Shown here: positions 16,801-58,373 of the stretch, in pieces
How positions within the stretch are numbered: the stretch's first letter is position 1
Layout of the letters: each line of letters starts with the position of its first letter
Origin: Hypomyces perniciosus
Taxonomy: Eukaryota; Ascomycota; Sordariomycetes; Hypocreales; Hypocreaceae
Direction: 5' to 3'
Assembly (NCBI GenBank): GCA_008477525.1
Contig: SPDT01000006.1
Coordinates: 337,501-401,500, forward strand
DNA length: 64,000 bases
Made by a program: the position numbers and the translations under genes
The notes under the pieces: generated by a model
What the model was told of the DNA's origin: nothing
The model's input: only the letters and a program-made list of their open reading frames with translations
Database searches by the model: none

Positions 16801-16991
16801 TTATATTTTATAAAATCCTAGGAAAGTATTATTTCTTTATTTTTCAAAATCTATATTAAAATTGCAGTCTTTTATATTATTAGTTTCCTTTCTACTATTT
16901 TTAAGATTACTGCCAGGCAGTCTAATATAAGTTTTAACCTAGCTTTCATCGGTAAAAGCTTTAAAGTAATATATTTAGTGAAAGGGGTATT
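13900..16991 (-). pseudogene. pol of divergent Ty3/gypsy element G: RT, RNase H, integrase
   Basis: The minus strand reads as RT (from about 16991 down to 15900), RNase H/thumb (to about 15300) and integrase (to about 13900). The RT belongs to the lineage whose catalytic region reads L-D-D-I-x-V-x-G-P-K. Here the two Asp codons are Asn (16280-16285). The integrase C-terminal part, with its Pro-Phe-Tyr-Leu-Leu-Phe-like segment, lies near 14500-14560. Element X interrupts the gene at 16991. The frame continues correctly at 22399 once X and one copy of its TSD are removed, which proves X is a later insertion. All frames are broken by RIP. Confidence 0.8.
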
Positions 16992-17216
16992 TATAACAGG
17001 TATAGCCTAACTGGAAAGCATGCAGTTAAGGCACTTCTATATTGTCTATCTATAGCTAAGGAAGGAGGCTCTATATTAGCTATATATATGTTATATAGTT
17101 GTGTATATAAGGTTATAGCTAAGGTGGTTTCTTAATTAAATAAGCAGTCTAGTATTGGTTATATTTCCGGATTTAGTATAGTTGTAATTCCAGGAGATAT
17201 AGCCTAGCCTATAATA
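16992..17216 (-). repeat. 3' LTR of element X
   Basis: 225 bp. On the minus strand it runs from TATTATAGGC to CCTGTTATA, RIP-altered from TGTTACAGG...CCTGTTACA. It aligns with five other LTRs in the window (22169, 52450, 53184, 58374, 58822). Confidence 0.95.
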
Positions 17217-17231
17217 TTACCCCCCCTTTTT
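17217..17231 (-). promoter_or_regulatory. Polypurine tract of element X
   Basis: Read on the minus strand it is AAAAAGGGGGGGTAA directly before the 3' LTR. The same tract stands before the 3' LTR of Y at 58359-58373. Confidence 0.85.
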
Positions 17232-17249
17232 ACAATAACTGTCTCTTTA

Positions 17250-20200: not shown

Positions 20201-20860
20201 TAAAAAAGTTCTGGTTCTTTACTGTATTTATTGGCTTTTAAGGGAATCTGTAAATTGACTTCAAGGCAGTATAGTAAAAGCTTAATAGCTTCTTTTATAA
20301 AGAATAGTAAATAGAACTTTTTATATAGTTTAGGTAGGATATATTCCTAGGGATTTATAGGTTTCTTAGGCTAAAGTACTTTTTTAATATTAAAGGAAAT
20401 ATATTTCCTTTTCGCTATTCCTTTTAATATAGCAGTATTTTACTTATAATATTAAGGCTAATATAAGCTAGGCTTTTTATATAGCCTTAATATTCCCAGG
20501 CTCCTTTTTATTTGCGAATTATAACTATAGGCTAGCTTTTCTATAAGTAACTTCCTTTTTAGCTGCATTATATACTACCTAGTTAGCCTTAACTTAAAGC
20601 TTATTACAGATTAGGTTATAATCTAGTGTATCTACTATATAGGTACATTAATATTTAATATCGCTGTATAGATCTAGGTAAATAATAGTAATATAGCTGG
20701 TTTCTACCTTCTTATAAATCTCAGTAAATATCTTAATTTTCCTTTTAATAATCTTTATCTATAAAAGGTATAACTGTTAAGTAAAAGAGGAGTTTATAAT
20801 AGTATAAAGGTTATAGCTAATATTAAATAGTACTGTAATAAATATATTCTTTATTTTAGC
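17250..20860 (-). pseudogene. pol of element X: protease to chromodomain (broken)
   Basis: It reads on the minus strand and matches pol of Y (54700-58300) throughout. The protease lies near 20790-20850, its Asp-Thr-Gly now altered. The RT catalytic motif is Tyr-Phe-Asn-Asn at 19741-19752. RNase H spans about 18850-19350 and integrase about 17600-18750. The chromodomain lies at about 17320-17490; in chromoviruses this C-terminal domain steers integration to heterochromatin. Stops occur in all frames. Confidence 0.85.
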
Positions 20861-22168
20861 TTATAATATTACTAATTCACTAATTATATACTCCTTAAAC
20901 TCCTTTTATCCCTTTAACTTTTCCTTTATAGGCTTTAATACTTAACTTTATATTAAAGCTAATCTTTTAACTTATCGCTAAAGTTACCGTCTTCCTTACC
21001 ATTAATATACTAGTTATTATTATTAAACTTATAGTTAGCGATCTAGATTTAATATACTTAAGCTCTATAGCCTTTTTTTTAAAAATTAGGTAATATATCC
21101 CTTTTTCCTGCAATAGTAATATATAGCCTTTTAAGCAGTATCTGCCTTACTCGCTAAAAAGCTATATTAGCGCTAGTTCTTTATATAATTTATACCCTTT
21201 ATTTAGGTATTGCCCTTTTTATTAACTGCTTATATATAGTCCTTTAAAGTGCCATATAGTTAAGGCTTATTATATTTTTTCTGCTAAAAGTAGTTTATTA
21301 AAGCGGCTCTTATATTCTCTTAGTTTAGATCTAATTATTTAATACAGCTAGCGATATCTTAAACTTTAATAAGCTATTTACTATAAGTAAACAGTAAATC
21401 TACTATTATTCAGCAGAATTATAGTTTTAAAGATAATACTCCTTTAAGGAAAATAATCTTAATTTAATTAACTTAATTATTGCCGTTTACTTTAAAATGC
21501 TTTTATTTAAAGCAGGAAAGGAAAAATAAAAGTAAAGTTTTATCGCTTTACTTAAAAGTGTATAGCTTTTATACAGCTTAATTCTAAAGTCTTTAATCTT
21601 TATAGGTATAGTCTAGGTATTATATAAATTCTGCTAGGTTATAGTTCTTATTAATTCTTTTTTATATATAAAAGGTAGCAACTATTTATTTAAATATAAT
21701 ATTTAAGTAAGAGTTAATAAAGTACTATTATTTTTTATTATTATTATAGAACTCTTTATTAAATTTAAGCTTTTTGCGTATATTTTACGCTTATATAATA
21801 TACTCCTTTTACTTTTTTAAGAATTTAAATAGGTTAAAGAGTAGCTTCCTTTTAACTTTAAAAGCTTATATAAACTTTATTATAAAAGTTAATGCAGGCT
21901 TTATAGTTATAGCCTATACAGGTTCTTACTTAAGTTATAAAAGGAATAATATCTTATTTTTTTAGCTATTTAGCCTTTAAGTCGCTAATACTATAAAGTC
22001 TAGCTTTCTTATTAATACAGCTATTTATTTTTATAAAGGTAAAACAGCTTGCTTGATCCGCGACTATATATTATTGCCTTTAAAGGCTTAGTCTTTAAAA
22101 TTCACTATTTTCCTTTTACAGTAAAAGTTCTATTACTTGCTAGCTAGGTAATAGCTAAGCTATAGATA
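20861..22168 (-). pseudogene. gag of element X (broken)
   Basis: Gag relic with a CCHC zinc knuckle on the minus strand at 21080-21121, spacing C-x2-C-x4-H-x4-C. The second Cys (TGC) survives; the first is Tyr, the His is Tyr and the last position is lost. A 63-codon open frame on the plus strand (21774-21965) has no counterpart in the sister copies Y and W and is ignored. The leader next to the LTR matches that of Y at 53410-53500. Confidence 0.8.
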
Positions 22169-22393
22169 TATAATAGGTATAGCCTAACTGGAAAGTATAT
22201 AGTTAAAGCACTTTTATATTGTTTATTTATAGCTAAGGAAAGAGGCTCTATACTAGTCATATATATATTATATAGTTGTGCGTATAGGGTTATGGCCGAG
22301 GTAGTTTTTTAATTAGGTAAGCGGTCTAGTATTGGTTGTATTTCCGGATTCGGCGTAGTTATGATTCCGGGAGATATAGCCTAGCCTGTAACA
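22169..22393 (-). repeat. 5' LTR of element X
   Basis: 225 bp, collinear with 16992-17216. Its 5' end (right end on the plus strand) is well kept, reading TGTTACAGGCTAGGC on the minus strand. TSD GTATT follows. Confidence 0.95.
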
Positions 22394-23227: not shown

Positions 23228-23613
23228 TATAACAATCCGGGTTGATTCTTAAAGGATAAACCAAGGCTTATAGGTTTATATTAACAGAAAGGTTAGGGAT
23301 AAATATTAAGCAGGGTAATATAGTTATAATTCTATAGAATAGGTGGTTCTAGCAAATGCAATTTATTAACGACTATTTAAGTAACTATATTAAATAAATA
23401 ATAAGCTAGTTGTATATATATAAGGGAATAATTATAGATTACCTTAGATTACATTTATTTTCTTAATAATCTATAATAAGTCCTTCTATTAGCTTACTAG
23501 GATTACTTTATAGTTTATAATAACCTAAATAATCTAGTGCTAATTAGTTTGTTTATCTAAGGTTCCTTTAAGTATATACTATATTACGTTCTTATAATAA
23601 TCGGGCTATAATA
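23228..23613 (-). repeat. 3' LTR of element E1
   Basis: 386 bp. On the plus strand it reads TATAACAATCCGGGTTG at the left and ends ...CGGGCTATAATA. Sister LTRs at 25893, 33852 and 39350 show the unaltered ends TGTAACGATCC and ...CATAACA. Confidence 0.92.
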
Positions 23614-23728
23614 TAATATCCCTTTCCGGTTAATTTTATCTTTAAGACCTATTAGTTCTTTTTATAAATACCACTATCCCTTACAGTTTATAGGTATAGT
23701 GCCTTTATTTTATATTTTATGTTTTTTT

Positions 23729-24345
23729 ACTAACAGAATATTAAATTGTATAGCGAAATCTCATTCTTGTAAAACTAAATAGCGCCTAGCTCTTTTTTCA
23801 TTAATTAAGGCTACTGGTGATTTTATTATGCCTTATTTATTCTGCTATAGTCGCAATCTTTCTTATAAGATAATTACAGATAATTTATATTATAGTGAGT
23901 GTATACAGTAAGGTCGTTTATATAATAGTTCTAGTATTATGCTTTCTGCAGGTTTATTTTTTGTTAAGTTTATTGATTTTTTTTTAATTTATAGTATAGC
24001 GCAATATATAATTTTAGAGAAGTAAAAGATAAAGCGAGAAAAAGAAGAGACTAAGGCTCGCTTACTCCGCGCTTAATAAAAGGTAAACAAGGCCTTTGCG
24101 AAGTTGGTATACTTAAGGCAACAGTATCGGTCTATAGTATTTTATAGTCATAAAATGGTTTATTGTAGTCTTAAATCCCTAAACAAGTTAGATAAAGCGG
24201 AATATCGAGAAGTAGAAGCAGCTATCGATATATATTCTTTTAGGGCTGTTAATATAATTAACTAGACTGCCTTTAGGTCGCTTAATCTGTTGTTAATAAG
24301 TTAAGATTTCGGTGGAATTATTGCAGAGTTATCTAAAAGTATTTA
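23729..24345 (+). pseudogene. Antisense Zn(II)2Cys6-like regulator frame in E1
   Basis: It lies between the end of pol and the 3' LTR but runs opposite to gag-pol. The frame holds six positions spaced C-x2-C-x6-C-x8-C-x2-C-x6-C (23834-23923), exactly a fungal Zn2Cys6 (GAL4-type) DNA-binding cluster. The second (TGC 23843-23845) and fifth (TGT 23900-23902) Cys are intact; the other four are TAT, the RIP product of TGT. An Arg-Asn-Leu-Ser segment precedes the third Cys. Downstream comes a Lys/Glu/Arg-rich, Leu-repeating stretch typical of a coiled coil, then an acidic segment ending near an Ile-Asn-stop-Thr motif. There are about six stops in ~200 codons, far fewer than in the neighbourhood. 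A 1-nt indel disturbs the start. A DNA-binding role is inferred, not shown. Confidence 0.7.
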
Positions 24346-24399
24346 AAGTGCTTTTTAGGTTCCTAGGAGTTATATTCCTCTCTATAGTTTTTTTATTTT

Positions 24400-25892
24400 A
24401 TTAAATACTGGCGTTTATTGTTTTCTATTTTTATAGTTTTAATTTTTTTAATTTTATACTCCTCTTTAACTAATAGGACTTCAATTAAATCTATAATTAG
24501 TCTATTTTCCAATTTATCTTATAATGCTTTTTTAAGTAATAAAATATAAAATACTAGGTAAATCTAAATACTGTCTAGTAGTATAAGTTTATAAGTAACC
24601 TTTAAAATAACCTTTTTAACTAGATAAAGTCTAAATTTCTTAAAATCCAATTTATCGCTTAATCGCGTTATTTTAATATTTACAGTCTTTTTTCCTAGTA
24701 AATAATAATATAAGTAAACTATATCTCCCTCTTTAAAGATTAGTCCCTTTAATCTATATTTATTAGTATATTTTTTTATTTTTTCCTATATAAAGTAAAA
24801 GTATACCTATATTTCTTTATATAACTGCTTTATATCTTTAGCTTTAATTTATACTTTATTAATATATAGGCCTTTCCTTAGCGCTTTATATATATCTGGT
24901 ATAAAGCTATAGTTAGTGTATATAGGGCTAAGTCTAGTCGATTTTAAAATGTTACTGTTATAGGATATTTATATAATTAATAACTTTTCTACTTAAGTGT
25001 TTTAGTTAAAGTTAATATAGCTTTTTAGATAGGCTTTAATAATCTAGTTAATACATTCTGTTTAACTATTTATCTATAGGTAATATATAGTATTAAGCTT
25101 ATAATTTATACTTAATTGATTTATAAGTGCTTGCTAGAATTTAGATATAAAGGTTAATCTTTAGTTAGAAATAATTTTAGCTGGAATTATATAGTTAACT
25201 GCAATAAATTGCAAGAATATATAAGCTAGTATTTCTATATCTATTACTTCTTTATATAAAAGGAAATAAAAGTATTTAGTGAATTAGTCTATAATTATTA
25301 AAATACTATTATACTTAATTTTCGATTTTGGTTTAATAGATAATAGTAGTTTAATAATAAAGTCTAATAAAATTAATTGTTATAGTTATTCCAGTATTAA
25401 TAAAGGTTAAAGTTTACTGTATAGCTTATATTTTAAGGGTTTAACTGTTTTATCAATTATATAGTAAGAAATAATATTTTATATTACTTTTTTAAGCCTT
25501 TAAAATTCAAAATACCTTTATACTTATTTATAAGTTTTGCGAATACTTTTATATCTATATACTAAATATTAATAAACTTTTATAATTATATTTTTCTAAA
25601 GTTTATCTAAGATTTAAATCTTTTTATTTTATTATTAAGTTCCTTTTTTATTAAACTTTATATCTTTTAGGAATGTATTATTATTTTAAGTAGTATAGTG
25701 CTCTTTAATATATTGAAGTATAATATTATTACTAGATACCTTATATATAGCTTAAAATGCTATTTATTAGTAACATCTTTTAAAGGTTTATTCTAAAATC
25801 TGCCTAGTGTATTTAATCTTTCCTTAATTATAGTCAGCTTATCTACTAAGCGCGTTTACTTATCTGTTTTCGGATCTTTTCTAGTAAATTAA
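24400..25892 (-). pseudogene. Integrase part of pol of E1 (broken)
   Basis: The minus strand reads as the zinc domain (near 25600-25800), catalytic core (about 25000-25400, first Asp near 25350 in a Leu-Asp-Phe-Ile context) and C-terminal SH3-like part. Integrase cuts and joins cDNA ends. It is collinear with E2 27100-29190. At 25888-25892 the sequence ends in ATTAA, the TSD of E2, and its upstream continuation is at 34239. Confidence 0.85.
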
Positions 25893-26279
25893 TGTAACGA
25901 TCCGGGTTGATTCTCAAGGGATAAACCAAGGTTCATGGGTTTATATTAACAGAGAGGTCAAAGATAAATACTAAGCAGGGTAATGTAGTCACGATTCTAT
26001 AAAACAAGCGGTTCTAGTGAATGCAATTTATTAACGACTGTCTAAATAACTATACTAAATAAATAACAAGCCAGTTATATATATATAAAGGGAATAATCT
26101 TAAATCACCTTAGATTACACTTATTTTCCTGATAATCTATAGTAAATCCTTCTATTAGCTTACTAAAATCACTTTATAGCTTATAGTAACCTAAATAATC
26201 TAATACTAATTAATTCGTTTATCTAAAGTTCCTTCAAGTATATACTATATTATATTCTTATAATAGTCAAGTTATAATA
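25893..26279 (-). repeat. 3' LTR of element E2
   Basis: 387 bp. The left end on the plus strand is TGTAACGATCCGGGTTG, the best preserved terminus of the family. Confidence 0.95.
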
Positions 26280-26383
26280 CAATATCCCCCTCCTATTAGT
26301 CTTATCCCTAAAACCTATTAATTCCTCTATAAATACCGCTATCCCCTATAGTTTATAAATATAATGCCTTTATTTTATATTCT

Positions 26384-27010
26384 GTGTTTTCTGCTAACAG
26401 AATATCAGGTCGCATAGCGAAATCTCATTCTCATAAAACTAAACAGCGCCTAGCTCTTTTTTCATTAATCGAAGCTACTAGTAATTTTATTATACCTTAT
26501 TTATTCTACTATAATCGCAATCTTTCTTATAAAATAATTACAGATAATTTATATTATAATAAATATATACAGTAAGGTTATTTATGCAATAGTTCCAGTA
26601 TTACATTTTCTACAGGTTTATTTTTTATTAATTTTTATTAAATTTTTCTAATTTATAGTATAGTATAATATATAATTTCAGAAAAGCAAAAGATAAAATA
26701 AAAAGAAAAAGAGACTAAGGCTTATTTACTCTGCGCTTAATAAAAGGTAAACAAGGCTTTTATAAAGTTAGCGCATTTAAAGCAACAGTATTAGTCTATA
26801 GTATCTTATAGTTATAAGATAGTTTAGTATAGTCTTAAATCTTTAGACAAGTTAGATAAGGCGGAATATTATAAAGCAAAAGCTGCTATTAATATATATT
26901 CCTTTAAGGCTGTTAATATAATTAATTAAACTGCCTTTAGGTTACTCGATCTGTTATTAATAGGCTAAGATTTTAGTAGAATTATTATAAAGTTATCCGC
27001 GAGTATTTAA
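26384..27010 (+). pseudogene. Antisense Zn(II)2Cys6-like regulator frame in E2
   Basis: Second copy of the frame described at 23729, again opposite to gag-pol and between pol and the 3' LTR. The first 63 codons (26384-26575) are still open. The same spacing C-x2-C-x6-C-x8-C-x2-C-x6-C is at 26498-26587; five positions are now Tyr codons (TAT/TAC) and the sixth Cys (TGC 26585-26587) survives. Between the two copies, three of six Cys are therefore directly seen. The Lys/Glu-rich helix and the final segment also align. One in-frame TAA just after the fifth position is shared by both copies, so it may be old. The start is uncertain: GTG stands at 26384 where E1 has ATG. Confidence 0.7.
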
Positions 27011-27099
27011 AGTATTCTTTAAGTTCCTAAAAGTTATATTCTTCTCTATAGTTTTTCCATTTAATTAAATACTAGCGTTTATTATTTTCTATTCTTATA

Positions 27100-27539
27100 G
27101 CTTTAATTTCTTTAACTTTATATTTTTCTTTAACTAGTAAAACTTTAATTAAGTCTATAATTAATCTATTTTCTAATTCGTTTTATAATACTTTTTTAAA
27201 TAGTAAAATATAAAATACTAAGTAAATTTAAATATTATCTAGTAGTATAAATTTATAAATAACTTTTAAAATAACCTTTTTAACCAGGTAAGGTCTAAGT
27301 TTCTTAAAATCTAATTTATCGCTTAGTCGCGTTATTTTAATATTCGCAGTCTTTTTCCTTAGCGAATATTAATATAAATAAACTATATCTCCCTCTTTAA
27401 AGATTAGTCCCTTTAATTTATATTTATCGGTATACTTCTTTATTTTTTCCTATATAAAGTAAAGGTATACCTGTATTTTTTCATATAACTGCTTTATATC
27501 TTTAGCTTTAATTTATACTTTATCGATATATAGGCCTTT
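27100..27539 (-). pseudogene. C-terminal integrase part of E2
   Basis: Minus-strand relic collinear with 24450-24880 of E1. It is split from the rest of integrase (from 28180) by the 635-bp mini-element; the duplicated bases are CCTTT. Confidence 0.8.
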
Positions 27540-27615
27540 TGTCAGACCACAAATCCAGCAAAAGTGAAGCTCTACACAATCTGCGTGGATAAGTGACCTT
27601 ATATGCTATGTGACA
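27540..27615 (-). repeat. 76-bp LTR (3' end of chimeric mini-element)
   Basis: Reverse complement of the 76-bp direct repeats at 37808-37883 and 38178-38253. Ends TGTCA...TGACA. A G-run purine tract (CCTGGGGGGTG on the minus strand) abuts it at 27616. Confidence 0.9.
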
Positions 27616-27836
27616 CACCCCCCAGGTGCGATAGTCTAGATAGAGCGCCTGTATTCCCTGTAATCCTATATAAAGGGCAGGGCGCAGAGGACTTTTCTGC
27701 TAACCTTAACCGTGGCTGCAGTGCCTAGATCTGGTTAAACTAGGACTTTTGCCTAGATCTGGTTAAACTAGGACTTTCTTCGGCTTTATTTTAATTCCCC
27801 CGAATAAATAGTAGGAACCCTAGCGTATTTTAATTC

Positions 27837-27868
27837 CTCCAGGACAGAATCGAACTTGCAACCTGGAG
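27837..27868 (-). other. tRNA T-arm/B-box-like hairpin
   Basis: A perfect 7-bp stem CTCCAGG/CCTGGAG encloses GTTCGATTC (27847-27855, minus strand). That string fits the RNA polymerase III B-box consensus GWTCRANNC and a tRNA T-loop. No A-box at normal spacing and no complete tRNA fold is present, so it is not a tRNA gene. The same block is in the mini-element at 37927-37958. Confidence 0.45.
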
Positions 27869-27898
27869 CTATGTCGGATAATTTCGCGCGAAACAATA

Positions 27899-27911
27899 CC
27901 GGGCTCATAAC
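27899..27911 (-). promoter_or_regulatory. Primer-binding site, half initiator tRNA-Met
   Basis: On the minus strand GTTATGAGCCCGG directly follows the 5' LTR-like block. Its complement CCGGGCTCATAAC is the CAU anticodon loop and 5' stem of eukaryotic initiator tRNA-Met. Copia and Ty5 are known to prime from this internal site using a cleaved 5' half of that tRNA. Confidence 0.7.
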
Positions 27912-28174
27912 TGTGGCGGAGCGCGGCACAGCTATGTGGAGCATAGAGAGATGGGAAACGAAGCTTGATTCTATGAAAGAGAATATGCCGTAGTGGCCTC
28001 GCTATATATACACATAGCTAACACAAAGAAGAAGCTGTGTGCAGCGCTGTAAGCGTCTGCACCGTCTGACACATCGCTTACGCGATGTGTATATCAGCTT
28101 GTATCTGCTTTGTAAGCAGATAAGAGCTCCCTAGCGCTGACAAGCGGTAGGGCCCCGGCCTACTCAACCTAACA
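27912..28174 (-). repeat. 263-bp LTR-like 5' end of chimeric mini-element
   Basis: Starts TGTTAGG and ends CGCCACA on the minus strand, with a TATATATAG box near its middle. It contains two perfect 9-bp-stem hairpins: ACACATCGC/GCGATGTGT with a TTAC loop (28069-28090) and TATCTGCTT/AAGCAGATA with a TGT loop (28102-28122). No second copy is in this window, so its family is unknown. Confidence 0.65.
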
Positions 28175-28179
28175 CCTTT

Positions 28180-29190
28180 CTTTAGCGTTCTATATATATC
28201 TGGCATAAAGCTATAGTTAATATATATAAGGCTAAGTCCAGTTAACTTTAAAATATCGCTATTATAAGATATTTATACAATTAATAGCTTCTCTACCTAA
28301 TTATTTTAGTTAAAGTTAATATAACTTTTTAAATAAACTTTAATAATCTAGTTAATATATTTTATTTAACTATTTATCTATAGCTAATATATAGTATTAA
28401 GCTTATAATTTATGCCTAACTAACTTATAAATACTTACTAGAATTTAAACGTAAAAGTTAATCCTCGGTTAAAAATAATCTCGGCTAGAATTATATAGTT
28501 AGCTACAATAAATTGCAAAAATATATAAGCTAGTATCTCTACATTTATTACTTCTTTATATAAAAAGAAGTAAAAGTATTTAATAAATTAATCTATAATT
28601 ATTAAGATACTATTATATTTAATCTTTATTCTTAATTTAATAAATAATAATAATTTAATAATAAAGTCTAATAAAATTAACTCTTATAGTTATTCCGGTA
28701 CTAGCAAAGGTTAGAGTTTGCTGTATAGTTTATATTTTAAGGGTTTAACTATTTTACAAATTATACAGTAAAAGACAATATCTTATACTACTTTCTTAAG
28801 CCCTTAAAACTTAAAGTACCTTTATATTTATTCGCAAGTCTTACAAATGCCTTTATATCCGTATACTAGGTATTAATAAACTTCTATAACTATGTTTTTC
28901 TAGAGTTTGTCTAGGACCTAAATCTTTCTATTTTATTATTAAGTTCCTTTTTCATTAGACTGTATATTTTCTAGGAATCTATTATTATCCCAGGTAATAT
29001 AATGCTCTTTAATGCATTAAAGCGTAGCATTATTACTGGATACCTTATATATAGCTTAAAGTGCTATTTATTAATAATATCCTTTAAAGGTCTGTTTTAA
29101 AATCTGCCTAGTATACTTAATCTTTCTTTAGTTATAATCGGCTTATCTGTTAAGCGCGTCTACTTATCTATTCTTGGATCCTTTTTAATG
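28180..29190 (-). pseudogene. Integrase of E2, zinc domain and core (broken)
   Basis: Minus-strand continuation of the integrase split by the 635-bp mini-element. The core matches E1 25000-25400. The C/T and G/A differences between the two copies are spread evenly, as RIP leaves them. Confidence 0.82.
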
Positions 29191-30690
29191 GATCAGGATA
29201 TAGTCGAATTGTAAGAGGTATTCCGTATAGCGGATCTGCCTTTTAGAGAGTTATTAAACTATCGCGAAATACGCAATATTCTTATAGTTAATATATACCT
29301 TAACTTTATATATTCCTCCTAACAGGTAATATCGCTATTCCTTAAATATAAGAATAATAGCGAGGAATTCTTTATTATATATTAAGTAATTCAATTCTAT
29401 ACTATATAGTGCTTTAAAGTAAAAGGCAATAGGGTATAGTTTACTATTCTTATCCTTTTAACTAAATTAAACTCCTATAGTAAAGTTAGAAATATCTATT
29501 TTAACTTCTATTTCCTTAAATAAATTAAATATAATAAATATAGGTTCTTTTAAAATAAACCACTTAAGTTTATTAAATATATCCTATATATTTAATGCCT
29601 ATAGAAATTTTTAATCCTTTTTAATAAGTTTATAGAGGGTTTATATAATACTTCTATAGCCTTTAATAAATTGTTAGTAATAGTTAGCGAGTCTTAAAAA
29701 GCTTTAGACTTCTTTAACTATTATATATATAGGCTAATTTTATACTGCTTATACTTTTAATAAATTTATATAAATTTCTTTAAAGGTAATAATATACTTT
29801 AAGAAAGTAACTTTCTATATATAGAATTTGCATTTCTTTAGTTTTATAAGTAGTTTAATATCTTATAGTATCTATAATACTTTATAGATATATGCCTTAT
29901 ATTTTTTAAAGGTATTTAAAAAAATTAAAATATTATTTAAGTAAATAACTATAAAAATATTAAAGTACTTTTTTAATATATTCTTAATTATCTTTTAGAA
30001 TATCGCAGGGGCGTTAGTGAGATTAAAAGGTATAATTAAATATTTAAATAAGCTATATTTAGTTTAAAAGGCAGTTATCTATTTATATCCTTTTTTAATT
30101 TAGATAAGGTTATAAGCGCCTTTAAGGTCTAGTACTATAAACTACTTTTTCCTATATAGCCTATCCTGCAATTTTATAATTAACAGTAGTGGAGTTTTAT
30201 TTTTAATAGTAGCTTTATTAAACTATTAGTAGTCTATAATTAACTATAGTTTACCTCTTTTCTTTAATATAAATATAATAAAATAGCCTACTTTTAATAA
30301 AGAAAGTTAAATATACCTTTTAGCTAATATATTATTTAAATAGTCATATAGGCTTTTAAGCTCTTTTTTATTTAAATTATAAATTTTATAAAAAGTAATA
30401 CTTACACTATCTTTAAGCTTAATTATATAGTCCTATTAACTGTATTCCAGTAGCTTTATATTAAGTGTTTCCTTAAATAGCTTATTATATTTCCAGTATT
30501 CTTTAAAGATATTTTATAGCTATTCTATTAATACTGTTATTTTAAGGCTTTTTATATTAAGTATTTTATTAATATTATTAAATACTTTCTATAAACAGGC
30601 AATTATTCTTTAAATTTATCTATCCTTCCCTTTACTTTATTTAAATTTTATTCTTAAATAAATTATTTCTATAATCAAATCAAAGGTAAC
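29191..30690 (-). pseudogene. RT and RNase H of E2 (broken)
   Basis: RNase H occupies roughly 29191-29560 and RT 29560-30690. The catalytic motif is Tyr-Leu-Asn-Asn at 29932-29943, from an original pair of Asp. RT copies element RNA into DNA. The homologous part of E1 is 34239-35760 with the same loss. Confidence 0.85.
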
Positions 30691-31110
30691 TTTCTTAATC
30701 CCTTTCTTTAGTATACCCAAGGGTTCTATACAAGATTTCTGCCCTGCAGCTAAGGCCTTTCTAATAGTTCCAATCGCTAAAGAAGCTTTACTATCGCGCC
30801 AATAAAGCTAGCTATTCTCCCAGTTAATATTAAGGTTATTAAATTTTAACTAAAAATAACCGAGAATAATGTTATACCTATTAATATTCACTATATTACA
30901 AGGAACCACTCCCTTGCATTTAGCGATTTCAAGTTCAAGATAATCAGTCTTTCGCTTAACCTATCTATTATTATATATAAAGGCTCCTCTTTTTGCCTAA
31001 TAAAGTTAATACAGTCTAGTTTTCTTTTTCTAAAGTAACTATAAGCGATTTATAATTATAGGTACAATAAAATTGCCTATCGCTCCACTATCTATTAATA
31101 TATATAACTA
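30691..31110 (-). pseudogene. Protease and post-protease linker of E2
   Basis: The aspartic protease site Asp-Ser-Gly-Ala is intact at 31081-31095, followed by Gly-Asn-Phe-Ile. Downstream (30780-30880) is the usual Ile-Leu-Gly-Tyr-x-Trp-Leu segment found after the protease in Ty3/gypsy. This block has fewer stops and more CpG than the rest of E2. In E1 the Gly of DSG has become Arg (near 36128-36142). Confidence 0.8.
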
Positions 31111-33851
31111 ATATCCCTTAACTATTATCTTTAATTTAAAATATAGTAAATTTTTATTATTACTTTTATTATTTAATATTTTAAAAGATATAATTTATTA
31201 ATTATTACTTTATAGCCCTTTTATAGGTAATATTAATTATTTCCCAATTTTTCTCTTTTTATATAGATTTTATAGTTAATCAGGGTTTTTTAAAGTACAT
31301 ACTATTTTCTTTTATTATAGGCAATTCCTTTATAGGTAATAAAGTTAAACTAGTTTCAGTGCAGCTCTTTTATAATTTAATTAATCTCTCTGTCTTTTAA
31401 AGTAGGTTTATACTTTATATAATTTTACATTTACTATTTTTAGAGTCTTTCCTATAGGTAGATAGCGCATTTATCCTTTTAATAGTATATATAATTTAGT
31501 GATAAGTATAGGGTATTATTGGTTTATTATAAGTGCTAATCCTGCAATTTATTTTATTTATATATAATACACTTTAGGCTATTGCACTTTAAATAGTGTT
31601 ATTAATTGCACTTAAACCTTTTATTATAGCGGAAGTGCTATTTTATTAATTTCTCTTTATAGTAGATATAGTATCCTTTAAACTTATATCCTTTAAGTCT
31701 TTATAGCTAATAATATTCCTTTAAGGTTTTAGTATTTAATTTAATAATAACAATTTTAAAGTTTTAATACTATATAATTATAATCTATTCTTCGAAAGTA
31801 TTATAATCCTATACCTGCTTTACAGGGTAAAACAGGATTCTAATTAGGAATATATTATACTTTACTTTCTCCTAAAAGTATATTATATACCTATATATAA
31901 TATAAATGACTTAGGATATAGTATAGTGCTTTTTATAAGTAGGGTTATTTATAGTATAGTCTTTTTATATATAGAAATATACAGGTTCTTTGCATATAGC
32001 TAAAGTAACTAGGATAGCTTTAACAGCTATTTCGTTATTAACTCTATTTTGCATATAGAGCTGTCTATATAGGTATAAGTTCAACCTATTTTATTATATA
32101 CCTATAGCAACTCTTTTAATTAAGTTTAAGTAGTATTCGTTTAGCTTACCCTTAAGGTTACTGTTTATAGGTAATATGTTTTCTAGTTCTAAAAGTATAG
32201 TACTATATAGTAATAGTCTATATCGCGAAAGGTTATTTTTATCTTTATTATTAAAGTTACTGCTATTAATCTATCTTTTATTGCCTGCAGTAATTTAATT
32301 AAAATCTTAATAGTTAATTACAGTAACTATTTATTTATTTAAAATACTATTATCTTTATCTAACTTTATATAGCTAGAGTTTAGGTTTTATTCCATTAAA
32401 CTATTTAGGTATAGTAAATACCTGTTTATTTTATTTTCTCTGAAAATGTCTTTAAGAGTCGAGGATCTAGGTCTTAACCGGTATCCCCTTTAATTTATTA
32501 TAGATATTTTTCTAGGTTATTTCAGGTATTATCCGCTTTTATCTTTACTGGATTTATAAATAAGGCAGCTATTATTATAGTATATAGTCCAGCTAAGTAA
32601 TATATAATTAGTGGTTTTTAAAACTATATTAACCTTTTATTTAGGTTTTAGCGCAGGCTTTTAAAGTTTATTAATTCTTAGTTTTTATAAAGCTTTATAG
32701 TCCTTTAAAAAGTATCCTAGTTTATTATAGTTATAATAGGCAGCCTTTACTTTTCCCTTTTAAATAGCATTTAAATCTATTTAACTAGGTCTTTTATTAT
32801 TAAAGCTAGCGATATATTTTTATTGCTTTTTACTTTAGTTTATATATTCTTCATATTTATAAACTTATATAGATTACTGTTATCCTTTCTTTATATTTAA
32901 GTAAAGTTTATAAAGTAAATTATCTATATTTATATATTTTTTAATAAACTTAATAATACCTTTATCGCGAAAGAACTTATAGGCTTCCTTTTTAACTTTT
33001 AGCTTAAATCTAATATAAAAGCATTTAATAAAAGTAAGGTTTCCTTATTTAACTTTAAAAGTATAGTTCTTAAAGTATATCGTATAATTAAAGTATTTTC
33101 CTTTCTAGATTAAGTTTATAAATTTATTTTCTGCAGTATATTCTTTACTAATATTATTAAAGACATTCTTTAGTTTTTCCTTAAACCAATTATAGCTAGC
33201 GAATATAAACTGTATTTACTTATTAGCTTTACTTTTATTATTAAAGAAATCCCTTTAGGTAGGTTTAAACTATTTTAGGGTATTCCTTTTAAGTCGTCTA
33301 GCAGCTAAAAGAACTTTACTAGTCTTTATATTAAAGCTGGTTAAAAAATAGGTAAAATAATTGTATAATTAAATGAAAAATAGTTAAAGCGTTATAATAC
33401 TTCCATTAAAATGCTTAAAGGGTTACATCTTAAGTAACTCCCTTAAATCCCTTAAAGGTCAGTTCCCTTTATAGTTTAGTATAAAGTTTAGGTTAAATGC
33501 AGGCAGCGCTTAATTCTATAAATCTATAATAGTCGCTTACTGTTAGTAAATTATTTAATTAAGCCTAGCGTTTTTAGCAATTAAGTATTAATAGCGTTAC
33601 TCTTATTCTATATAGTTAGCTTCTATATATTAGAAGGCTTCCTTTATACAGATATATAGTTATTCCGTTTTATTAACTTTATCCTTATCTTTACTTCCAC
33701 TTATATTATTATCTCCATCATTATCCTACCTTTAGCGAGGAGGTAGAATAAAGGGTAGAGTATTAAGGTTATTAGAAGAGGATACTGTAGCGGATATATT
33801 TATAATATTATTTAAGGTTCTCAGTAGCCTTTTAAATAAAAGTTATTAATA
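31111..33851 (-). pseudogene. gag and 5' leader of E2 (broken)
   Basis: By position and by match to E1 36150-39349 this is Gag plus the untranslated leader. Stops occur in all frames and I could not fix a zinc knuckle with standard spacing. A purine-rich patch near 33730-33790 is shared with E1 (39230-39285). Confidence 0.65.
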
Positions 33852-34238
33852 TATAATAATCTAGGTTAATTCTTAAGGGATAAACCAAGGTTTATAGGTT
33901 TATATTAACAGAAAGGTTAAGGATAAATACTAAATAAAGTAATATAGTTACAATTCTATAGAATAAGCGGTTCTAGTAAATGCAATTTATTAACAACTAT
34001 CTAAATAACTATACTAAATAAATAATAAACTAGTCGTATATATATAAAAAGAATAATCTTAGATTACCTTAAATCATACTTATTTTCCTGATAATCTATA
34101 GTAAGTCTTTCTATTAACTTACTGGGATTACTTTATAGTTTATAGTAACCTAAGTAATCTAATACTAATTGGTTTATTTATCTGAGGTTCCTCCGGGTAC
34201 GTACTATGTCACGTTCTTATAATGGTCGGGTTATAACA
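33852..34238 (-). repeat. 5' LTR of element E2
   Basis: 387 bp, collinear with 25893-26279. Its right end keeps GGTCGGGTTATAACA. TSD copy ATTAG follows at 34239. Confidence 0.95.
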
Positions 34239-36150
34239 ATTAGAATATAGTCGAATTCTAAAAGGTATTTTATATAGTAGATTTATCTTTTAGAGAGTTA
34301 TTAAACTATTGCGAAATATATAATATTTTTATAGTTAATATATACTTTAACTTTATATATTCCTTTTAATAAGTAGTATTGCTATTCTTTAAATGTAAGA
34401 ATAATAGCAAGGAATTCCTTATTATATATTAAGTAGTTTAATTTTGCGCTATATAGTATTTAAGAGTAAAAGGTAATAGGGTATAGTTTACTGTTTTTAT
34501 CTTTTTAATTAAGTTAAGCTTTTATAGTAAAGTTAAAAGTATCTATTTCGACTTTTATTTCTTTAAATAGGTTAAATATAATAAATATAAATTCTTTTAA
34601 AATAAATTGCTTAAGTTTATTAAATATATCCTATATATTTAATGCCTATAGGAACTTTTAATCCTTTTTACTAAGTTTATAGAGGGTTTATATAATATTT
34701 TTATAGCCTTTAATAAATTATTAATAATAGTTAGCGAGTTTTAAAAAGCTTTAGATTTCCTTAACTATTATAGGTATAGGCTAGTCTTTTACTGCTTATA
34801 CTTTTAATAAATCTATACAAATTTCTTTAAGGGTAATAATATACCTTAGGAAAGTAACTTTCTGTATATAGAATTTGCATTTCTTTAGTTTTATAAGTAG
34901 TTTAGTATTTTATAGTGTCTATAATACTTTATAAATATATATTTTATATTCTTTAAAGGTATTTGAAAAGATTAAGATATTATTTAAGTAAATCACTATA
35001 AAGATATTAAGGTATTCTTTTAATATATTATTAATTATCTTTTGGAATATTATAGGGGTATTAGTAAGACTAAAAGGTATAACTAGGTATTTAAATAAAC
35101 TGTATTTAGTTTAAAAGGCGGTTATTTATTTATATCCTTCTTTAATTCAGATAAGGTTATAAGCGCCTTTAAGGTCTAGCGCTATAAACTACTTTTTTTT
35201 ATATAGTCTATTCTATAATTCTATAATTAATAGTAATAGAGTTTTATCCTTAATAGTAGCTTTATTAAACTATTAGTAATCTATAACTAACTATAGTTTA
35301 CCTTTTTTTTTTAATATAAATATAATAAGGTAGCCTGCTTTTAATAAAAAAGGTTAAATATACCCTTTAATTAATATATTATCTAAATAATTGCATAGGC
35401 TTTTAAGCTTTTTTTTATTTAGATTATAAATCTTATAAAAGGTAGTATTTATATTATCTTTAAGTTTAATTATATAGTCTTATTAACTGTATTCCAGTAA
35501 TTATATATTAAATGTTTCCTTATACAGTTTATTATATTTCTAGTATTTTTCAGGGATATTCTGCAGTTATTCTAGCAATACTGCTATTTTAAGGCTTTTT
35601 ATCTTAAGTATTTTATTAATATTATCGAATATTTTCTGTAAAAAGGTAATTGTTTTTTAGATTTATTTAATTTTCCCTTTACTTTACTTAAGCTTTATTT
35701 TTAGGTAGATTGTTTCTGTAATTGAATTAAAGGTAACTTTCTTAGTCCTTTTCTTTAATATACTTAGGGATTTTATATAAGATTTCTGCCTTACAGCTAA
35801 AGCCTTTTTAATAATTCTAATCGCTAAAGAAGCTTTACTATTGCGCTAATAAAGCTAGCCTTTCTTTTAGTCGATATTAAGGTTATTGCATTTTAACTAA
35901 AGATAACCGAAAATAATATTATACCTATTAATATTTACTATATTGCAAGGAACTACTCTTTTACATTTAGCGATTTTAAGTTTAAGACAATTAATTTTTT
36001 ACTTAACCTATCTGTTATTATATATAAAAGCTCCTTCTTTTACTTAATAAAATTAATATAGTCTAGTTTTCTCTTTCTAAAGTAACTATAAACAATTTAT
36101 AGTTTTAAGTATAATAAAATTACCTATTACTCTGCTATCTATTAATATAT
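34239..36150 (-). pseudogene. RNase H, RT and protease of E1 (broken)
   Basis: Starts exactly at the E2 insertion point and is collinear with E2 29195-31110. The RT catalytic pair, the protease site and many Gln/Arg/Trp codons are altered by RIP. Its downstream part (integrase) is at 24400-25892. Confidence 0.85.
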
Positions 36151-37807
36151 ATAGCTAATATTCTTTAACTATTATCTTTAATTCAAAATATAGTAAATTT
36201 TTATTATTACTTTTATCATTTAATTTTTTTAAAAATATAATTTATTAATTATTACTTTATAGCCTTTTTACAGGTAATATTAATTATTTCTTAATTCTTT
36301 TTTTCTTATATAAATTTTACAGTTAATTAAAGTTCCTTAAAGTAAATACTACTTTCTTTTATTATAGGCAATTCCTTTATAGGTAATAAAGTTAAACTAG
36401 TTTTAGTGCAGTTCCTTTATAATTTAATTAATCTTTCTGTCTTTTAAGGCAGGTTTATACTTTATATACTTTTACATTTACTATTTTTAAAGTTTTTCCT
36501 ATAAGTAAATAGCGTATTTATTTTTCTAGCAGTATATATAGTCTAGCAATAAATATAGGGTATTATTAGCTTATTATAAATACTAATCCTGTAATTTATT
36601 TTGCTTATATATAATATACTTTAAGCTATTATATTCCAAGTAATATTATTAATTGCATTTAAACCTTCTATTATAGTAAAAGTACTACTCTATTAATTTC
36701 TTTTAATAGTAGATATGATATCCTTTAAACTTATATCTTTTAAGACTTTATAGCTGGCGATATTCCTTTAAGGTTTTAGTATTTTATTTAATAATAATAA
36801 CTTTAAGGTCTTAATACTATATAGTTATAATCTATTCTTTAAAAGCATTATAATCCTATACCTATTTTATAAAGTAGAATAGGATTTTAATTAGGAATAT
36901 ATTATATTTTACTTTCTTTTAAAAGTATACTATATACCTATATATAATGCAAGTAACCTAGGATATAGTATAGTATTCTTTATAGTTAAGGTTATTTACA
37001 GTATAGTCTCTTTATTTATAAATATATATAAATTCCACTTATATAGCTAGGGCAGTTAAAACTACTTTAATAATTATTTTATTATTAGCTCTGTTTTATA
37101 TATAAAGCTATTTATATAGGCGTAAATATATCCTATTTTATTATATACTTATAGCAATTCTTTCAACTATATAAAGGTAATATTCATTTAAGTTATTTCT
37201 AAGATTACTATATATTAGTAGTATATTTTCTAGTTTTAAAGGTATAGCACTATATAGTAATAGTCTATATTATAAAGGATTATTCTTATCTTTATTATTA
37301 AAGTTACTGCTGCTAGTTTATCCTTTATTACCTATAGTAATTTAATTTAAATATTAATAATCGATTATAGCAACTAATTATTTATTTAAAATACTATTAT
37401 CTTTATTTAACTTTATATAACTAAAGTCTAGGTATTATTTTATTAAACTGTCTAGGTATAGTAAATACCTATTCGCTCTATCTCCTTTAAAAATATCTTT
37501 AAGAGTTAAAGATTTAGGTCTTAACTAGTATCCCCTTTAGTTTATTATAGATATCTTTTTAAATTGTTTCAGGTACTATCTGCTTTTATCTTTACTGGAT
37601 TTATAAATAAGGCAGCTATTATTATAGTATATAGTCTAGTTAAATAATATATAATTAATAGTTTTTAAAACTATATTAACTTTTTATTTAGGTTTTAGCG
37701 CAGGCTTTTAAGGTTTATTAGTTTTTAGCTTTTATAAAGCTTTATAGTCCTTTAAAAAGTATTTTAGTTTATTATAGTTATAATAAATAACTTTCGCTTT
37801 TCCTTTT

Positions 37808-37883
37808 TGTCATATAGTATATAAGGTTACTTATTTACGCAGATTGTATAGAGCTTCACTTTTACTGGATTTATAGTCTGACA
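37808..37883 (+). repeat. 5' LTR of 446-bp mini-element
   Basis: 76 bp, TGTCATATAG to GTCTGACA, with a TATATAAG box about 10 bp from its start that could serve as its promoter. Confidence 0.92.
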
Positions 37884-37896
37884 GTTATAAGCCCGG
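37884..37896 (+). promoter_or_regulatory. Primer-binding site, half initiator tRNA-Met
   Basis: GTTATAAGCCCGG immediately follows the LTR. It differs from the site at 27899-27911 by one G to A and is complementary to the anticodon arm of initiator tRNA-Met. Confidence 0.65.
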
Positions 37897-38164
37897 TATC
37901 GTTTCGCGCAAAATTATCTGATATAGCTCTAGGTTGCAAGTTCGATTCTGTCCTGGAGGAATTAAAATACGCTAGGGTTCCCACTATTTGGGGGAATTAA
38001 AATAAAAAGCCGAAGAAAGTCCTAGTTTAACTAGATCTAGGCAAAAGTCCTAGTTTAACCAGATCTAGGCACTGCAGCTATGGTTAAGGTTAGCAGAAAA
38101 GTCCTCTGCGCCCTGCCCTTTATATAGGATTACAGGGAATACAGGCGCTCTATCTGGACTATTG

Positions 38165-38177
38165 CACCTGGGGGGTG
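38165..38177 (+). promoter_or_regulatory. Polypurine tract of 446-bp mini-element
   Basis: CACCTGGGGGGTG abuts the 3' LTR; the run of six G is the likely plus-strand primer. Confidence 0.75.
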
Positions 38178-38253
38178 TATTATATAGTATATAAGGTTAC
38201 TTATCTACGCAGATTGTATAGAGCTTTACTTTTGCTGGATTTGTGGTCTAATA
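38178..38253 (+). repeat. 3' LTR of 446-bp mini-element
   Basis: 76 bp, collinear with 37808-37883. The terminal TGTCA and TGACA are here TATTA and TAATA. Confidence 0.92.
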
Positions 38254-39349
38254 CTTTTTAAATAGCATTTAGATTTATTTAATTAAGCCTTTTATTATTA
38301 AAGCTAGCAATATATTTTTATTGCTTTTTACTTTAGTTTATATATCTTTAATATTTATAAATTTATTTAAATTACTATTATCTTTTTTTTATATTTAAAT
38401 TGAGTTTATAAAGTAAATTATTAATATTTATATATTTTTTAATAAACTTAGTAATGCCTTTATTACAGGGGAACTTATAGGCTTCCCTTTTAACTTTTAG
38501 TTTAAGTCTATTATAAAAACGTTTAATAAAAGTAAAGTTTCTTTATTTAACTTTAAAAATATAGTTTTTAAAGTATATAGTATAGTTAAAGTATTTTCCT
38601 TTCTAGATTAAGTTTATAAGTTTATTTTCTGCAGTATATTCTTTATTTATATTATTAAAGATATTCTTTAATTTTTCTTTAAACTAATTATAACTAGCGA
38701 ATATAGTTTACATTTATTTATTAATATTAGCTTTATTATTAAAGAAATCCCTTTAAGTAAATTTAAACTACTTTAAGGCATTCCTTTTAAGTTATTTAAC
38801 AGCTAAAAGAATCTTATTAGTTTTTATACTAAAGCTAGTTAAAAAGTAGGTGAAATAGTTATATAGTTAAGTAAGAAATAGTTAAAGTGCTATAGTACTT
38901 TTATTAAAGTCTTTAAAGGGTTATATTTTAAGCGACTCTCTTAAATCCCTTTAAAGTTAATTCCCTTTAAGGTTTAGTATAGGGTTTAGAGCAGGTACAG
39001 GTAATATTTAGTTCTATAAGTCTATAATAGCTGCTTACTATTAATAAATTACTTACTAAAGTTTAGCATTTTTAGCGACTAAATATTAATAGCGTTATTC
39101 CTGTTCTATATAGTTGGCTTCTATATATTAAAAGGCTTTTTCTATATAAATGCAGAGTTGTTCCGTTTTGTCGGCTTTATCTTTATTTTCGCTTCCATTT
39201 ATATTATTATCTTTATTATAGTCCTGTCTTTAGTAAGGAGGTAGAGTAGAGGGTAGAGTGTTAGGGTTATTGGAAGAGGATACTACAGCAGATATACTTG
39301 CAATATTGCTTAAGATTCTTAATAGCCTTTTAAATAAAAGTTATTAATG

Positions 39350-39736
39350 TATAATAATCTGGGTTGATTTTTAAGGGATAAATTAAGGCTTATAGGTTTA
39401 TATTAATAAAGAGGTTAAGGATAAATACTAAGCAGGGTAATATAGTTATAATTCTGTAAAATAGGCAGTTTTAGTAAATGCAATTTATTAACAATTATCT
39501 AAATAAATATACTAAATAAGTAATAAGCCAGTTATATATATATAAAAGGAATAATTGTAGATTACCTTAGATTATATTTATTTTCTTAATAATCTATAGT
39601 AAATCCTTTTATTGGCTTACTAGGATTACTTTATAGTTTATAGTGACCTAAGTAATCCAGTACTAATTAGTTTATTTATCCGAGGTTCCTCTAGGTATAT
39701 ACTATGTTACGTTCTTATAATGGTCGGGCCATAACA
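39350..39736 (-). repeat. 5' LTR of element E1
   Basis: 387 bp, with the well-kept right end GGTCGGGCCATAACA. TSD copy CTTAT follows at 39737-39741. Confidence 0.95.
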
Positions 39737-42925: not shown

Positions 42926-43009
42926 TGATACACAATGGGGTGGAAAGGAGAGAATGAATGATAAAAGGGGAAGGGAAGGAAAGGGAAGGATACGCTTTTA
43001 TGCGTATCA
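42926..43009 (-). repeat. 3' LTR of Gag-like mini-element (84 bp)
   Basis: Minus strand: TGATACGCATAAAAGCGTAT, a pyrimidine-rich tract, then ...TTGTGTATCA. The first 20 bases form a hairpin (stem GATACGC/GCGTATC) whose loop holds ATAAAA, a TATA-like box; the CT-rich tract follows, as in fungal promoters. Confidence 0.9.
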
Positions 43010-43013
43010 AATG

Positions 43014-43022
43014 CCCCCCCTA
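43014..43022 (-). promoter_or_regulatory. Polypurine tract of Gag-like mini-element
   Basis: On the minus strand AGGGGGGG lies four to five bases before the 3' LTR. Confidence 0.7.
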
Positions 43023-43032
43023 GAAAAGAAAA

Positions 43033-43719: not shown

Positions 43720-43940
43720 GGAAACGCGTTATCAAACGCCGAAGAACGAAGGAATGAAAGAAAACGCGTTATCCGGCAGGTCTGATCGAGCCGGATTGAA
43801 GCTGCCGTTCAGGCCTGATGAAAGGGACGGCTTAGTCGATTGTAGATAGGTCTGGTTGCAGCTTGGTTGGTATTGGTTGGTTGGTTGCGTTTGGCTGTAT
43901 CTGGCAGCGGAAGCTGGTTACACGATCGGAATCATGAAAA

Positions 43941-43949: not shown

Positions 43950-43951
43950 TA

Positions 43952-58358: not shown

Positions 58359-58373
58359 AAAAAGGGGGGGTAA
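58359..58373 (+). promoter_or_regulatory. Polypurine tract of element Y
   Basis: AAAAAGGGGGGG then TAA, directly before the 3' LTR. Confidence 0.85.

What the first reader, a model, noticed from the sequence alone, without database searches (positions are those of the whole stretch)
23729..27010. Antisense Zn2Cys6 regulator-like gene carried by a Ty3/gypsy family
In both E1 (23834-23923) and E2 (26498-26587) a frame opposite to gag-pol, between pol and the 3' LTR, has the exact spacing C-x2-C-x6-C-x8-C-x2-C-x6-C. Three of the six Cys are still Cys in one copy or the other; the rest are TAT or TAC, the G to A products of Cys codons. A charged Leu-repeat segment follows, and stop density is clearly lower than around it. 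This spacing is that of fungal GAL4-type clusters. An LTR element carrying its own DNA-binding protein on the antisense strand would be unusual; it could regulate the element or its host, or be a captured host gene.
Basis: partly seen in the sequence, partly recalled or inferred. Interest (0 to 1): 0.87.

Follow-up and report, generated by a model that had tools for sequence, protein, structure and literature searches.

The report
Swappable antisense regulator of a retrotransposon
Copies of one retrotransposon in a likely fungal genome carry, on the strand opposite to its usual genes, the remains of a gene for a predicted zinc-cluster DNA-binding protein that differs as one block together with the element's promoter between otherwise nearly identical copies, so the protein likely controlled its own element.

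Summary
In 31 aligned copies the six sites are Cys or its RIP product Tyr in 27-31 of 31; the motif occurs in the window only at the two stated places (0.07 expected). The frame is a degraded, spliced gene (aORF) antisense to gag-pol, between pol and the 3' LTR: 50 of 53 aORF loci have pol's C-terminus on the opposite strand beside them. It belongs to a fungal protein family (63 of 82 fetched relatives have six Cys; zinc-cluster identity likely, by weak matches to Pho7, HAP1, GAL4).

New here: by RIP-proof transversions, pol differs 0.3-2.1% between element groups, as within them (0.1-1.8%), but the aORF differs 23-31% between and 0-1.4% within. The block begins at the R/U3 border of the LTR and ends in exon 2 of the aORF. 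At least five U3+aORF cassettes sit on one retrotransposon; U3 type matches aORF type in 49 of 50 copies. Three unalignable U3s share GATCAC repeats (14 against 0.6 expected); one cassette lacks them. Best reading: a self-specific regulator swapped together with its target sites, like a phage immunity region. Expression, binding and sign are untested. Nearest in print: brtn of Boty, plant Retand antisense ORFs, crapaud and Tnt1 U3 subfamilies.

The parts
23228..39736 (-). E1, Ty3/gypsy copy (type F1 cassette), gag-pol on - strand, interrupted by nested E2 and by a short insertion at about 37809-38255
   Evidence: Self-BLAST of window; LTR ends and 5-bp target-site duplication TTTAT/CTTAT read
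25893..34238 (-). E2, second copy (type F1 cassette), inserted into E1's pol; interrupted at about 27540-28174
   Evidence: 5-bp target-site duplication ATTAA/ATTAG
23228..23613 (-). E1 3' LTR; R-U5 about 23228-23425, U3 about 23425-23613
   Evidence: R-U5/U3 border placed by between-group alignment, approximate
25893..26279 (-). E2 3' LTR; R-U5 about 25893-26090, U3 about 26090-26279
   Evidence: border approximate
23738..23951 (+). E1 aORF exon 1 (predicted; start-codon position altered, broken)
   Evidence: Gene model read from aligned copies and from relatives
23834..23923 (+). E1 zinc-cluster segment, C/Y-x2-C/Y-x6-C/Y-x8-C/Y-x2-C/Y-x6-C/Y
23952..23999 (+). E1 aORF predicted intron (48 nt)
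   Evidence: frame switch between exons in F1 against F3; relatives that lack this stretch or carry it as read-through
24000..24358 (+). E1 aORF exon 2 (predicted, broken): coiled coil and tail; 3' end overlaps pol on the other strand
26402..26615 (+). E2 aORF exon 1 (predicted, broken)
26498..26587 (+). E2 zinc-cluster segment
26616..26663 (+). E2 aORF predicted intron (48 nt)
26664..27022 (+). E2 aORF exon 2 (predicted, broken)
24414..25883 (-). E1 pol C-terminal part up to the E2 insertion
   Evidence: (first 900 nt: 0.33% transversions to copy L040); domains by Pfam on L040
27078..27539 (-). E2 pol C-terminal part up to the short insertion
   Evidence: 0 transversions in 462 nt to L040

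Best explanation
The frame is the decayed remnant of an antisense gene whose product is predicted to be a dimeric zinc-cluster DNA-binding protein, and since this gene and the LTR's U3 promoter differ as one block between elements that share the same pol, the protein likely bound and regulated its own element's U3. Shown: position and orientation, six-Cys pattern, presence across the family, protein-level conservation, and the sharp-edged U3+aORF cassette on an otherwise shared retrotransposon. Inferred: transcription leaves the 3' LTR on the antisense strand, one 48-nt intron is spliced out, the long helix dimerises the protein, and the dimer reads repeated sites (GATCAC-like in cassettes F1-F3) in U3. 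U3 of the 3' LTR lies just upstream of the aORF and U3 of the 5' LTR drives gag-pol, so the protein would control both. The short acidic-aromatic tail of the relatives makes an activator somewhat more likely than a repressor. Cassettes probably move by template switching in reverse transcription: the first jump falls at R/U3, a second near the aORF/pol overlap.
For: Six Cys sites in 31 copies. Linkage: 50 of 53 aORF loci have pol's C-terminus on the opposite strand within 1.2 kb; 40 of 46 pol loci at 66% identity or more have a detected aORF, and 4 of 4 inspected of the 16 undetected at 60% or more carry a diverged aORF. Order LTR-aORF(+)-pol(-)-gag(-)-LTR complete in 9 of 15 long loci. Coding: F1 vs F3 tblastx 4e-26 in both exon frames while blastn's best is 15 nt. 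Relatives: 63 of 82 fetched proteins have six Cys; model pLDDT 87.9; fold matches Pho7, HAP1, GAL4. Cassette: transversions in pol 0.3-2.1% between and 0.1-1.8% within groups (12 copies), aORF 23.0-30.6% between and 0-1.4% within (11 copies); at the left edge 0 to 16 per 60 nt for L040/L050, and back to 0 at the right edge; all five cassettes on the same pol C-terminus (0-0.89% transversions to L040). U3 type = aORF type in 49 of 50 copies (45 of 46 without the four copies that served as reference for both), although the polypurine tract between them is more conserved and could have let them part. GATCAC/GTGATC 14 times (overlaps counted) in the U3s of L040, L041, L048; 0.56 expected, maximum 4 in 1000 resamplings; 0-0.04 per 190-nt window inside the elements.
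Confidence: 0.6

Rival explanations
1. The antisense gene is real, but U3 and aORF simply evolve fast (relaxed or diversifying selection) and were not exchanged as a block; the protein may act elsewhere in the life cycle.
For: U3 hypervariability with conserved R-U5 is known in Tnt1 and crapaud (PMC1838419 passages; PMC10787394 abstract and sections 8 and 12); the crapaud authors name diversifying selection as one possibility.
Against: Edges are abrupt; pol distances do not grow with cassette difference; the cassettes' nearest fetched proteins fall in three sets (F1 and F2 nearest P0019, F3 nearest P0002, F4 and F5 nearest P0062).
Confidence: 0.2
2. The protein targets integration or packaging rather than transcription, for example by tethering the pre-integration complex to host promoters.
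For: A DNA-binding fold is predicted; some LTR elements choose sites through DNA-bound factors (recalled).
Against: Does not explain why U3 changes together with the gene; pol already ends in an SH3-like domain and, read by eye, a chromodomain.
Confidence: 0.1
3. The strand acts as antisense RNA against gag-pol, and the protein is incidental.
For: Antisense transcripts over LTR elements are discussed as silencing triggers (PMC7264820 passages).
Against: Protein conserved across fungi with invariant or nearly invariant Cys, and F1 vs F3 similarity in the coding frames where DNA similarity is gone; an antisense RNA would need no open frame.
Confidence: 0.08
4. Chance pattern in AT-rich, Tyr-rich RIP DNA.
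For: Tyr codons are common in such DNA.
Against: Only two places in 64 kb, 0.07 expected; each site is Cys in at least 4 of 31 copies; relatives with six Cys in other fungi.
Confidence: 0.02

Closest known systems
brtn, the additional antisense gene of Boty-like elements of Botrytis cinerea (Zhao et al. 2011, Virology, doi 10.1016/j.virol.2011.06.020)
   Same: Fungal LTR element with gag-pol that includes a chromodomain, plus an extra gene antisense to gag-pol (title and passages in citing papers PMC7264820, PMC8365987, PMC4227169, PMC5987419).
   Different: The paper itself is not held and no BRTN sequence was available, so homology is untested; the citing passages seen mention neither a zinc cluster in BRTN nor cassette exchange. 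Our gene may be a brtn homologue.
Retand-type plant elements with antisense ORFs between pol and 3' LTR (TRP28 domain, PF04195)
   Same: Same position and orientation, predicted DNA binding, regulatory role proposed (PMC11963269 passages; PMC7264820 passages).
   Different: Different protein family and host kingdom; no co-swapped U3 in the passages seen.
crapaud of Podospora anserina: 14 subfamilies differing in U3
   Same: RIP-exposed ascomycete LTR element, R-U5 conserved, U3 diverged, internal region not following LTR type (PMC10787394 abstract, sections 8 and 12).
   Different: No antisense gene is mentioned in that main text ('antisense' 0, 'zinc' 0 occurrences); here a gene follows the U3 type.
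Tnt1 superfamily U3 modules
   Same: Groups that differ in U3 on a shared coding region; 'modular' evolution (PMC1838419 passages).
   Different: Plant Ty1/copia element (class recalled); no linked regulator gene in the passages seen.
Immunity region of lambdoid phages (recalled)
   Same: Regulator gene and its operators are swapped together between otherwise similar genomes.
   Different: Only the architecture is compared; here the function is unproven and the genome is a retroelement.
GAL4-type Zn2Cys6 regulators (PF00172)
   Same: Six-Cys order and spacing, two short helices in the cluster, following long helix.
   Different: Divergent sequence; the six-Cys relatives are mostly 164-257 residues, too short for the middle homology region of the usual regulators (that feature is recalled).

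Membership tests
Zn2Cys6 (GAL4-type) zinc cluster, PF00172 | Six Cys with spacing C-x2-C-x6-C-x5..12-C-x2-C-x6..8-C (range recalled) | tested here: met
   Element family F1: 2-6-8-2-6 in 31 copies, as Cys or Tyr. Relatives: 63 of 82 have six Cys in order; 47 of the 63 fit this range, 16 have 7 or 8 residues between Cys 2 and 3
Zn2Cys6 (GAL4-type) zinc cluster, PF00172 | Pfam score over the gathering cut-off | tested here: inconclusive
   Window piece none, L048 13.8 bits vs 21; 1 of 10 relatives over the cut-off (P0055, 22 vs 21); 7 of 51 members at E 0.1 or less, the family hit by most members
Zn2Cys6 (GAL4-type) zinc cluster, PF00172 | Zinc-cluster fold | tested here: inconclusive
Zn2Cys6 (GAL4-type) zinc cluster, PF00172 | Zinc-dependent DNA binding | not testable with these tools
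   Needs a binding assay
Ty3/gypsy (chromovirus-like) LTR element | LTRs, 5-bp target-site duplication, gag, CCHC, RT-RNase H-integrase order | tested here: met
   Pfam hits Retrotrans_gag, zf-CCHC, RVT_1, RT_RNaseH, SH3_Tf2-1 in 6 of 8 pieces of L040; the protease and integrase-core pieces had no Pfam hit and are placed by order and by eye
Ty3/gypsy (chromovirus-like) LTR element | Chromodomain at the pol C-terminus | tested here: inconclusive
   Seen by eye in the frame; the piece given to Pfam ended before it
brtn-type antisense gene | Antisense to gag-pol in a fungal LTR element | tested here: met
brtn-type antisense gene | Sequence homology to BRTN | not tested
   No BRTN sequence obtained; paper not held
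Immunity-region-like cassette | Regulator gene and promoter differ together on a conserved backbone | tested here: met
   (that the gene is a regulator is inferred)
Immunity-region-like cassette | Regulator acts only on its own cassette's sites | not testable with these tools
   Matched/mismatched reporter or binding test needed

The most novel reading that the evidence does not exclude
Fungal Ty3/gypsy elements carry an 'immunity region': an antisense zinc-cluster regulator and its binding sites in U3 form a matched self-recognition pair that is swapped as one cassette by template switching, letting sister elements of the same genome escape or ignore each other's control, and explaining why U3s split into subfamilies in fungi.
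Probability: 0.4. Interest if true: 0.9.

Novelty: new variant of a known kind. Interest (0 to 1): 0.76.

Why it matters
Antisense genes between pol and the 3' LTR have been reported in plants, and an antisense gene in Botrytis, without a known role, and the U3 subfamilies of crapaud are described by their finders without a settled cause. A DNA-binding protein gene that travels with its U3 would give a concrete, testable reason for both: element-specific control of transcription and competition among sister elements. It also gives a rule for finding such genes: look where U3 differs but R-U5 and pol do not.

Tried and rejected
Chance motif: rejected. Recent host capture: I found no copy shown to be a host gene. 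Of the 53 aORF loci, 3 had no pol C-terminus beside them: C16:604359 (N-terminal part only, with an exon-2 piece about 4 kb away), C8:302265 (a 141-nt piece in a locus where several element pieces meet) and C8:2887599 (F1 U3 and F1 aORF); beyond they were not followed. The two classes were an orientation error of mine, corrected. dN/dS was not computed because RIP transitions dominate; transversions and tblastx against blastn were used instead. CGG/CCG triplets (the usual zinc-cluster target, recalled): 6-11 per LTR in 8 copies, one near the inner end of U3 in several copies; no repeated pair arrangement was seen, and none was tested statistically. Other-species genomic context: three scans of viral contigs and one of genome contigs (prokaryotes) gave no confirmed locus, so linkage to LTR elements is shown in this genome only. 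A more distant relative (P0067) has no match in this genome. PDB sequence search with one piece found nothing; with the family profile the best match is centromere protein O (E 0.0079, in the helix), and Cep3, PUT3, LAC9 and RSC30 appear at E 0.57-5.3 among 26 rows. TATA-like boxes before the aORF: 5 of 6 F1, 3 of 3 F2 and 0 of 3 F3 copies, so no promoter claim is made. Hold-out of the GATCAC motif: F4 partly, F5 not. Copies left out of counts: one search used 12 of the 15 long loci for pol (not L043, L044, L046) and 11 for the aORF (not L052 either). Literature: searches listed (capped lists of 0-25 papers each) none that by title or shown abstract start describes a zinc-cluster antisense gene in an LTR element or a U3-plus-gene cassette; the library lacks most subscription papers, among them the brtn paper. 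PMC3248453 ('LTR Retrotransposons in Fungi'): 'antisense' has no occurrence in its main text.

Full report
What was checked. The stated frames exist as written on the + strand, opposite to gag-pol. The six-position C/Y pattern occurs in the 64-kb window only at 23834 and 26498; shuffles that keep local dinucleotides give 0.07 (60 shuffles, at most 2 in one). The genome (G000, 44 Mb, unnamed; fungal by its 143 Zn_clus matches, the RIP-like changes and the named relatives) holds at least 41 matches to a 61-residue open stretch of the E1 frame. In 31 aligned copies (E1, E2 and 29 others) the six codons are Cys or Tyr codons in 27 to 31 of 31; one copy has six Cys, one five, four have four. Every Cys codon has CpA on the other strand, the favoured RIP target (recalled), hence the Tyr codons. 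Three nearby sites that look like former Arg show R, H, C and Y; the six sites show no R or H.

The elements. E1 spans 23228-39736 and E2 (25893-34238) is nested inside it; both have 5-bp target-site duplications that differ by one transition. LTRs are about 386 nt. Of 15 long loci fetched, 9 show the complete order 3' LTR, aORF on one strand, then pol, gag and 5' LTR on the other; the rest are incomplete, rearranged or lack one detected part. Pfam finds gag, CCHC, RT, RNase H and an SH3-like integrase end in copy L040 (6 of 8 pieces).

The gene. Predicted exon 1 is 23738-23951 in E1 (26402-26615 in E2), a 48-nt intron follows, exon 2 is 24000-24358 (26664-27022). Several relatives lack the intron stretch and join at this place, and others carry it as read-through (my reading of the alignment). 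In both window copies the start-codon position is altered and stops lie in frame, so neither makes the protein. The gene's end overlaps the end of pol tail to tail.

Coding signal. F1 against F3: tblastx 4e-26 in the coding frames of both exons, blastn best 15 nt (E 7e-4). F1 against F2: 1e-27 in the coding frames, 1e-14 in reverse frames. F2 against F3: coding frame 8e-8, reverse frames 3e-8, so that pair (both RIP-altered) does not decide.

Presence. Merging searches gives 53 aORF loci; 50 have pol's C-terminus on the opposite strand within 1.2 kb. Of 90 pol loci (112 matches merged), 50 have a detected aORF: 40 of 46 at 66% identity or more, 7 of 22 at 56-65%, 3 of 22 below. I looked at 4 of the 16 undetected loci at 60% or more; all 4 carry a diverged aORF. 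These are lower bounds because the search scores limited candidates.

The cassette. Copies fall into groups by aORF. Between groups F1, F2 and F3 the identity is 85-93% in R-U5 and 80-87% in pol (6 pairs) and 74-84% in gag plus leader (4 pairs), but 40-47% in U3 and 44-54% in the aORF; within groups it is 89-92, 79-86, 81-91 and 78-91% for R-U5, pol, U3 and aORF (4 pairs). Since RIP makes only transitions, I counted transversions: pol 0.3-2.1% between groups against 0.1-1.8% within (12 copies); aORF 23.0-30.6% between against 0-1.4% within (11 copies). Along the sequence, for three between-group pairs, transversions are 0-4 per 60 nt up to position 180 of the LTR, then 9-25, fall to 2-8 at the polypurine tract, stay at 8-21 through the aORF and return to 0-2 after about 960 (F1/F2) or 1080 (F1/F3, F2/F3). 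Groups F4 (four copies) and F5 (one copy) share the same pol C-terminus (0.11-0.89% transversions to L040) and R-U5 but have further U3s and aORFs. So one retrotransposon carries at least five alternative U3+aORF blocks. U3 type and aORF type agree in 49 of 50 copies where both could be typed, 45 of 46 without the four copies that served as references for both; the exception rests on a 44-nt match in a rearranged locus, and four further aORFs had no U3 in the fetched stretch. E1 and E2 both have F1.

Possible sites. In three U3s, one little-altered copy per cassette (L040, L041, L048), GATCAC or GTGATC occurs 14 times with overlaps (0.56 expected, maximum 4 of 1000). In all 8 aligned copies the counts are 2, 3, 4, 1, 3, 7, 0 and 1, the lower ones mostly in RIP-altered copies. 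190-nt windows inside 8 elements have 0-0.04 on average. F4 has GGATC arrays with only 1-2 exact cores per copy; F5 has none. The motif was picked from the data, so it is a lead.

Mechanism. Shown: antisense gene, zinc-cluster-like protein family, cassette with U3. Inferred: transcription from the 3' LTR, splicing, dimerisation by the long helix, binding to U3. A protein gene that changes only together with its promoter, on a backbone that is otherwise shared, is best explained as a regulator with its own target sites, as in lambdoid phage immunity regions (recalled). The tail motif with Asp, Trp and Phe in many relatives suggests activation, but the sign is open. The left border at R/U3 is where minus-strand strong-stop DNA changes template (recalled), so packaging of two RNAs and a second switch near the aORF/pol overlap would produce such blocks; the crapaud paper raises the same possibility for its U3s (PMC10787394 section 8).

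Known and new. Antisense genes at this place are known in plants (Retand, Grande, RIRE2) and an antisense gene in Boty (brtn), and so are U3 modules (Tnt1, crapaud); Closest known systems says what was seen of each paper. New in this work, as far as the nine searches listed under Tried and rejected show: the zinc-cluster nature of the antisense protein and the linked change of gene and U3. The brtn paper could not be read and may cover the first point.

Noticed in passing
window 27540-28174 and 37809-38255: Two inverted, 93% alike copies of a roughly 370-nt sequence (27544-27914, 37881-38249) interrupt E2 and E1; they look less RIP-altered than their surroundings, so they probably arrived later.
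   Followed up: no
window 43001-44000: An island of 53% GC in AT-rich DNA with overlapping open frames, the longest 231 codons at 43033-43728 on the - strand, rich in repeated Arg/Gln/Ser-Arg-Leu motifs.
   Followed up: no
window 16988-22391 and 52446-61123: Large inverted pairs (up to 1.47 kb, 80-92% complementary) of other repeats, with a short terminal repeat (16988, 22165, 52446, 53183, 58821), flank the nested gypsy pair.
   Followed up: no
window 62057-62461: 134-codon open frame on the - strand that by eye resembles the RNase H end of a Ty1/copia polyprotein.
   Followed up: no
genome copies, R-U5 of the LTR (first about 190 nt, e.g. from L040 position 1166): R-U5 is 82-96% identical to L040 in all 14 other copies compared (three over 167-169 nt only), whatever their U3, with 0-2.2% transversions; its outer end contains CCGG in nearly all copies read.
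   Followed up: partly
L051 (C16:1084900-1094800): In the aORF region this copy seems to show RIP-type changes mainly on one strand, unlike E1 and E2, which would explain intact Cys codons beside changed Arg codons (read by eye).
   Followed up: partly
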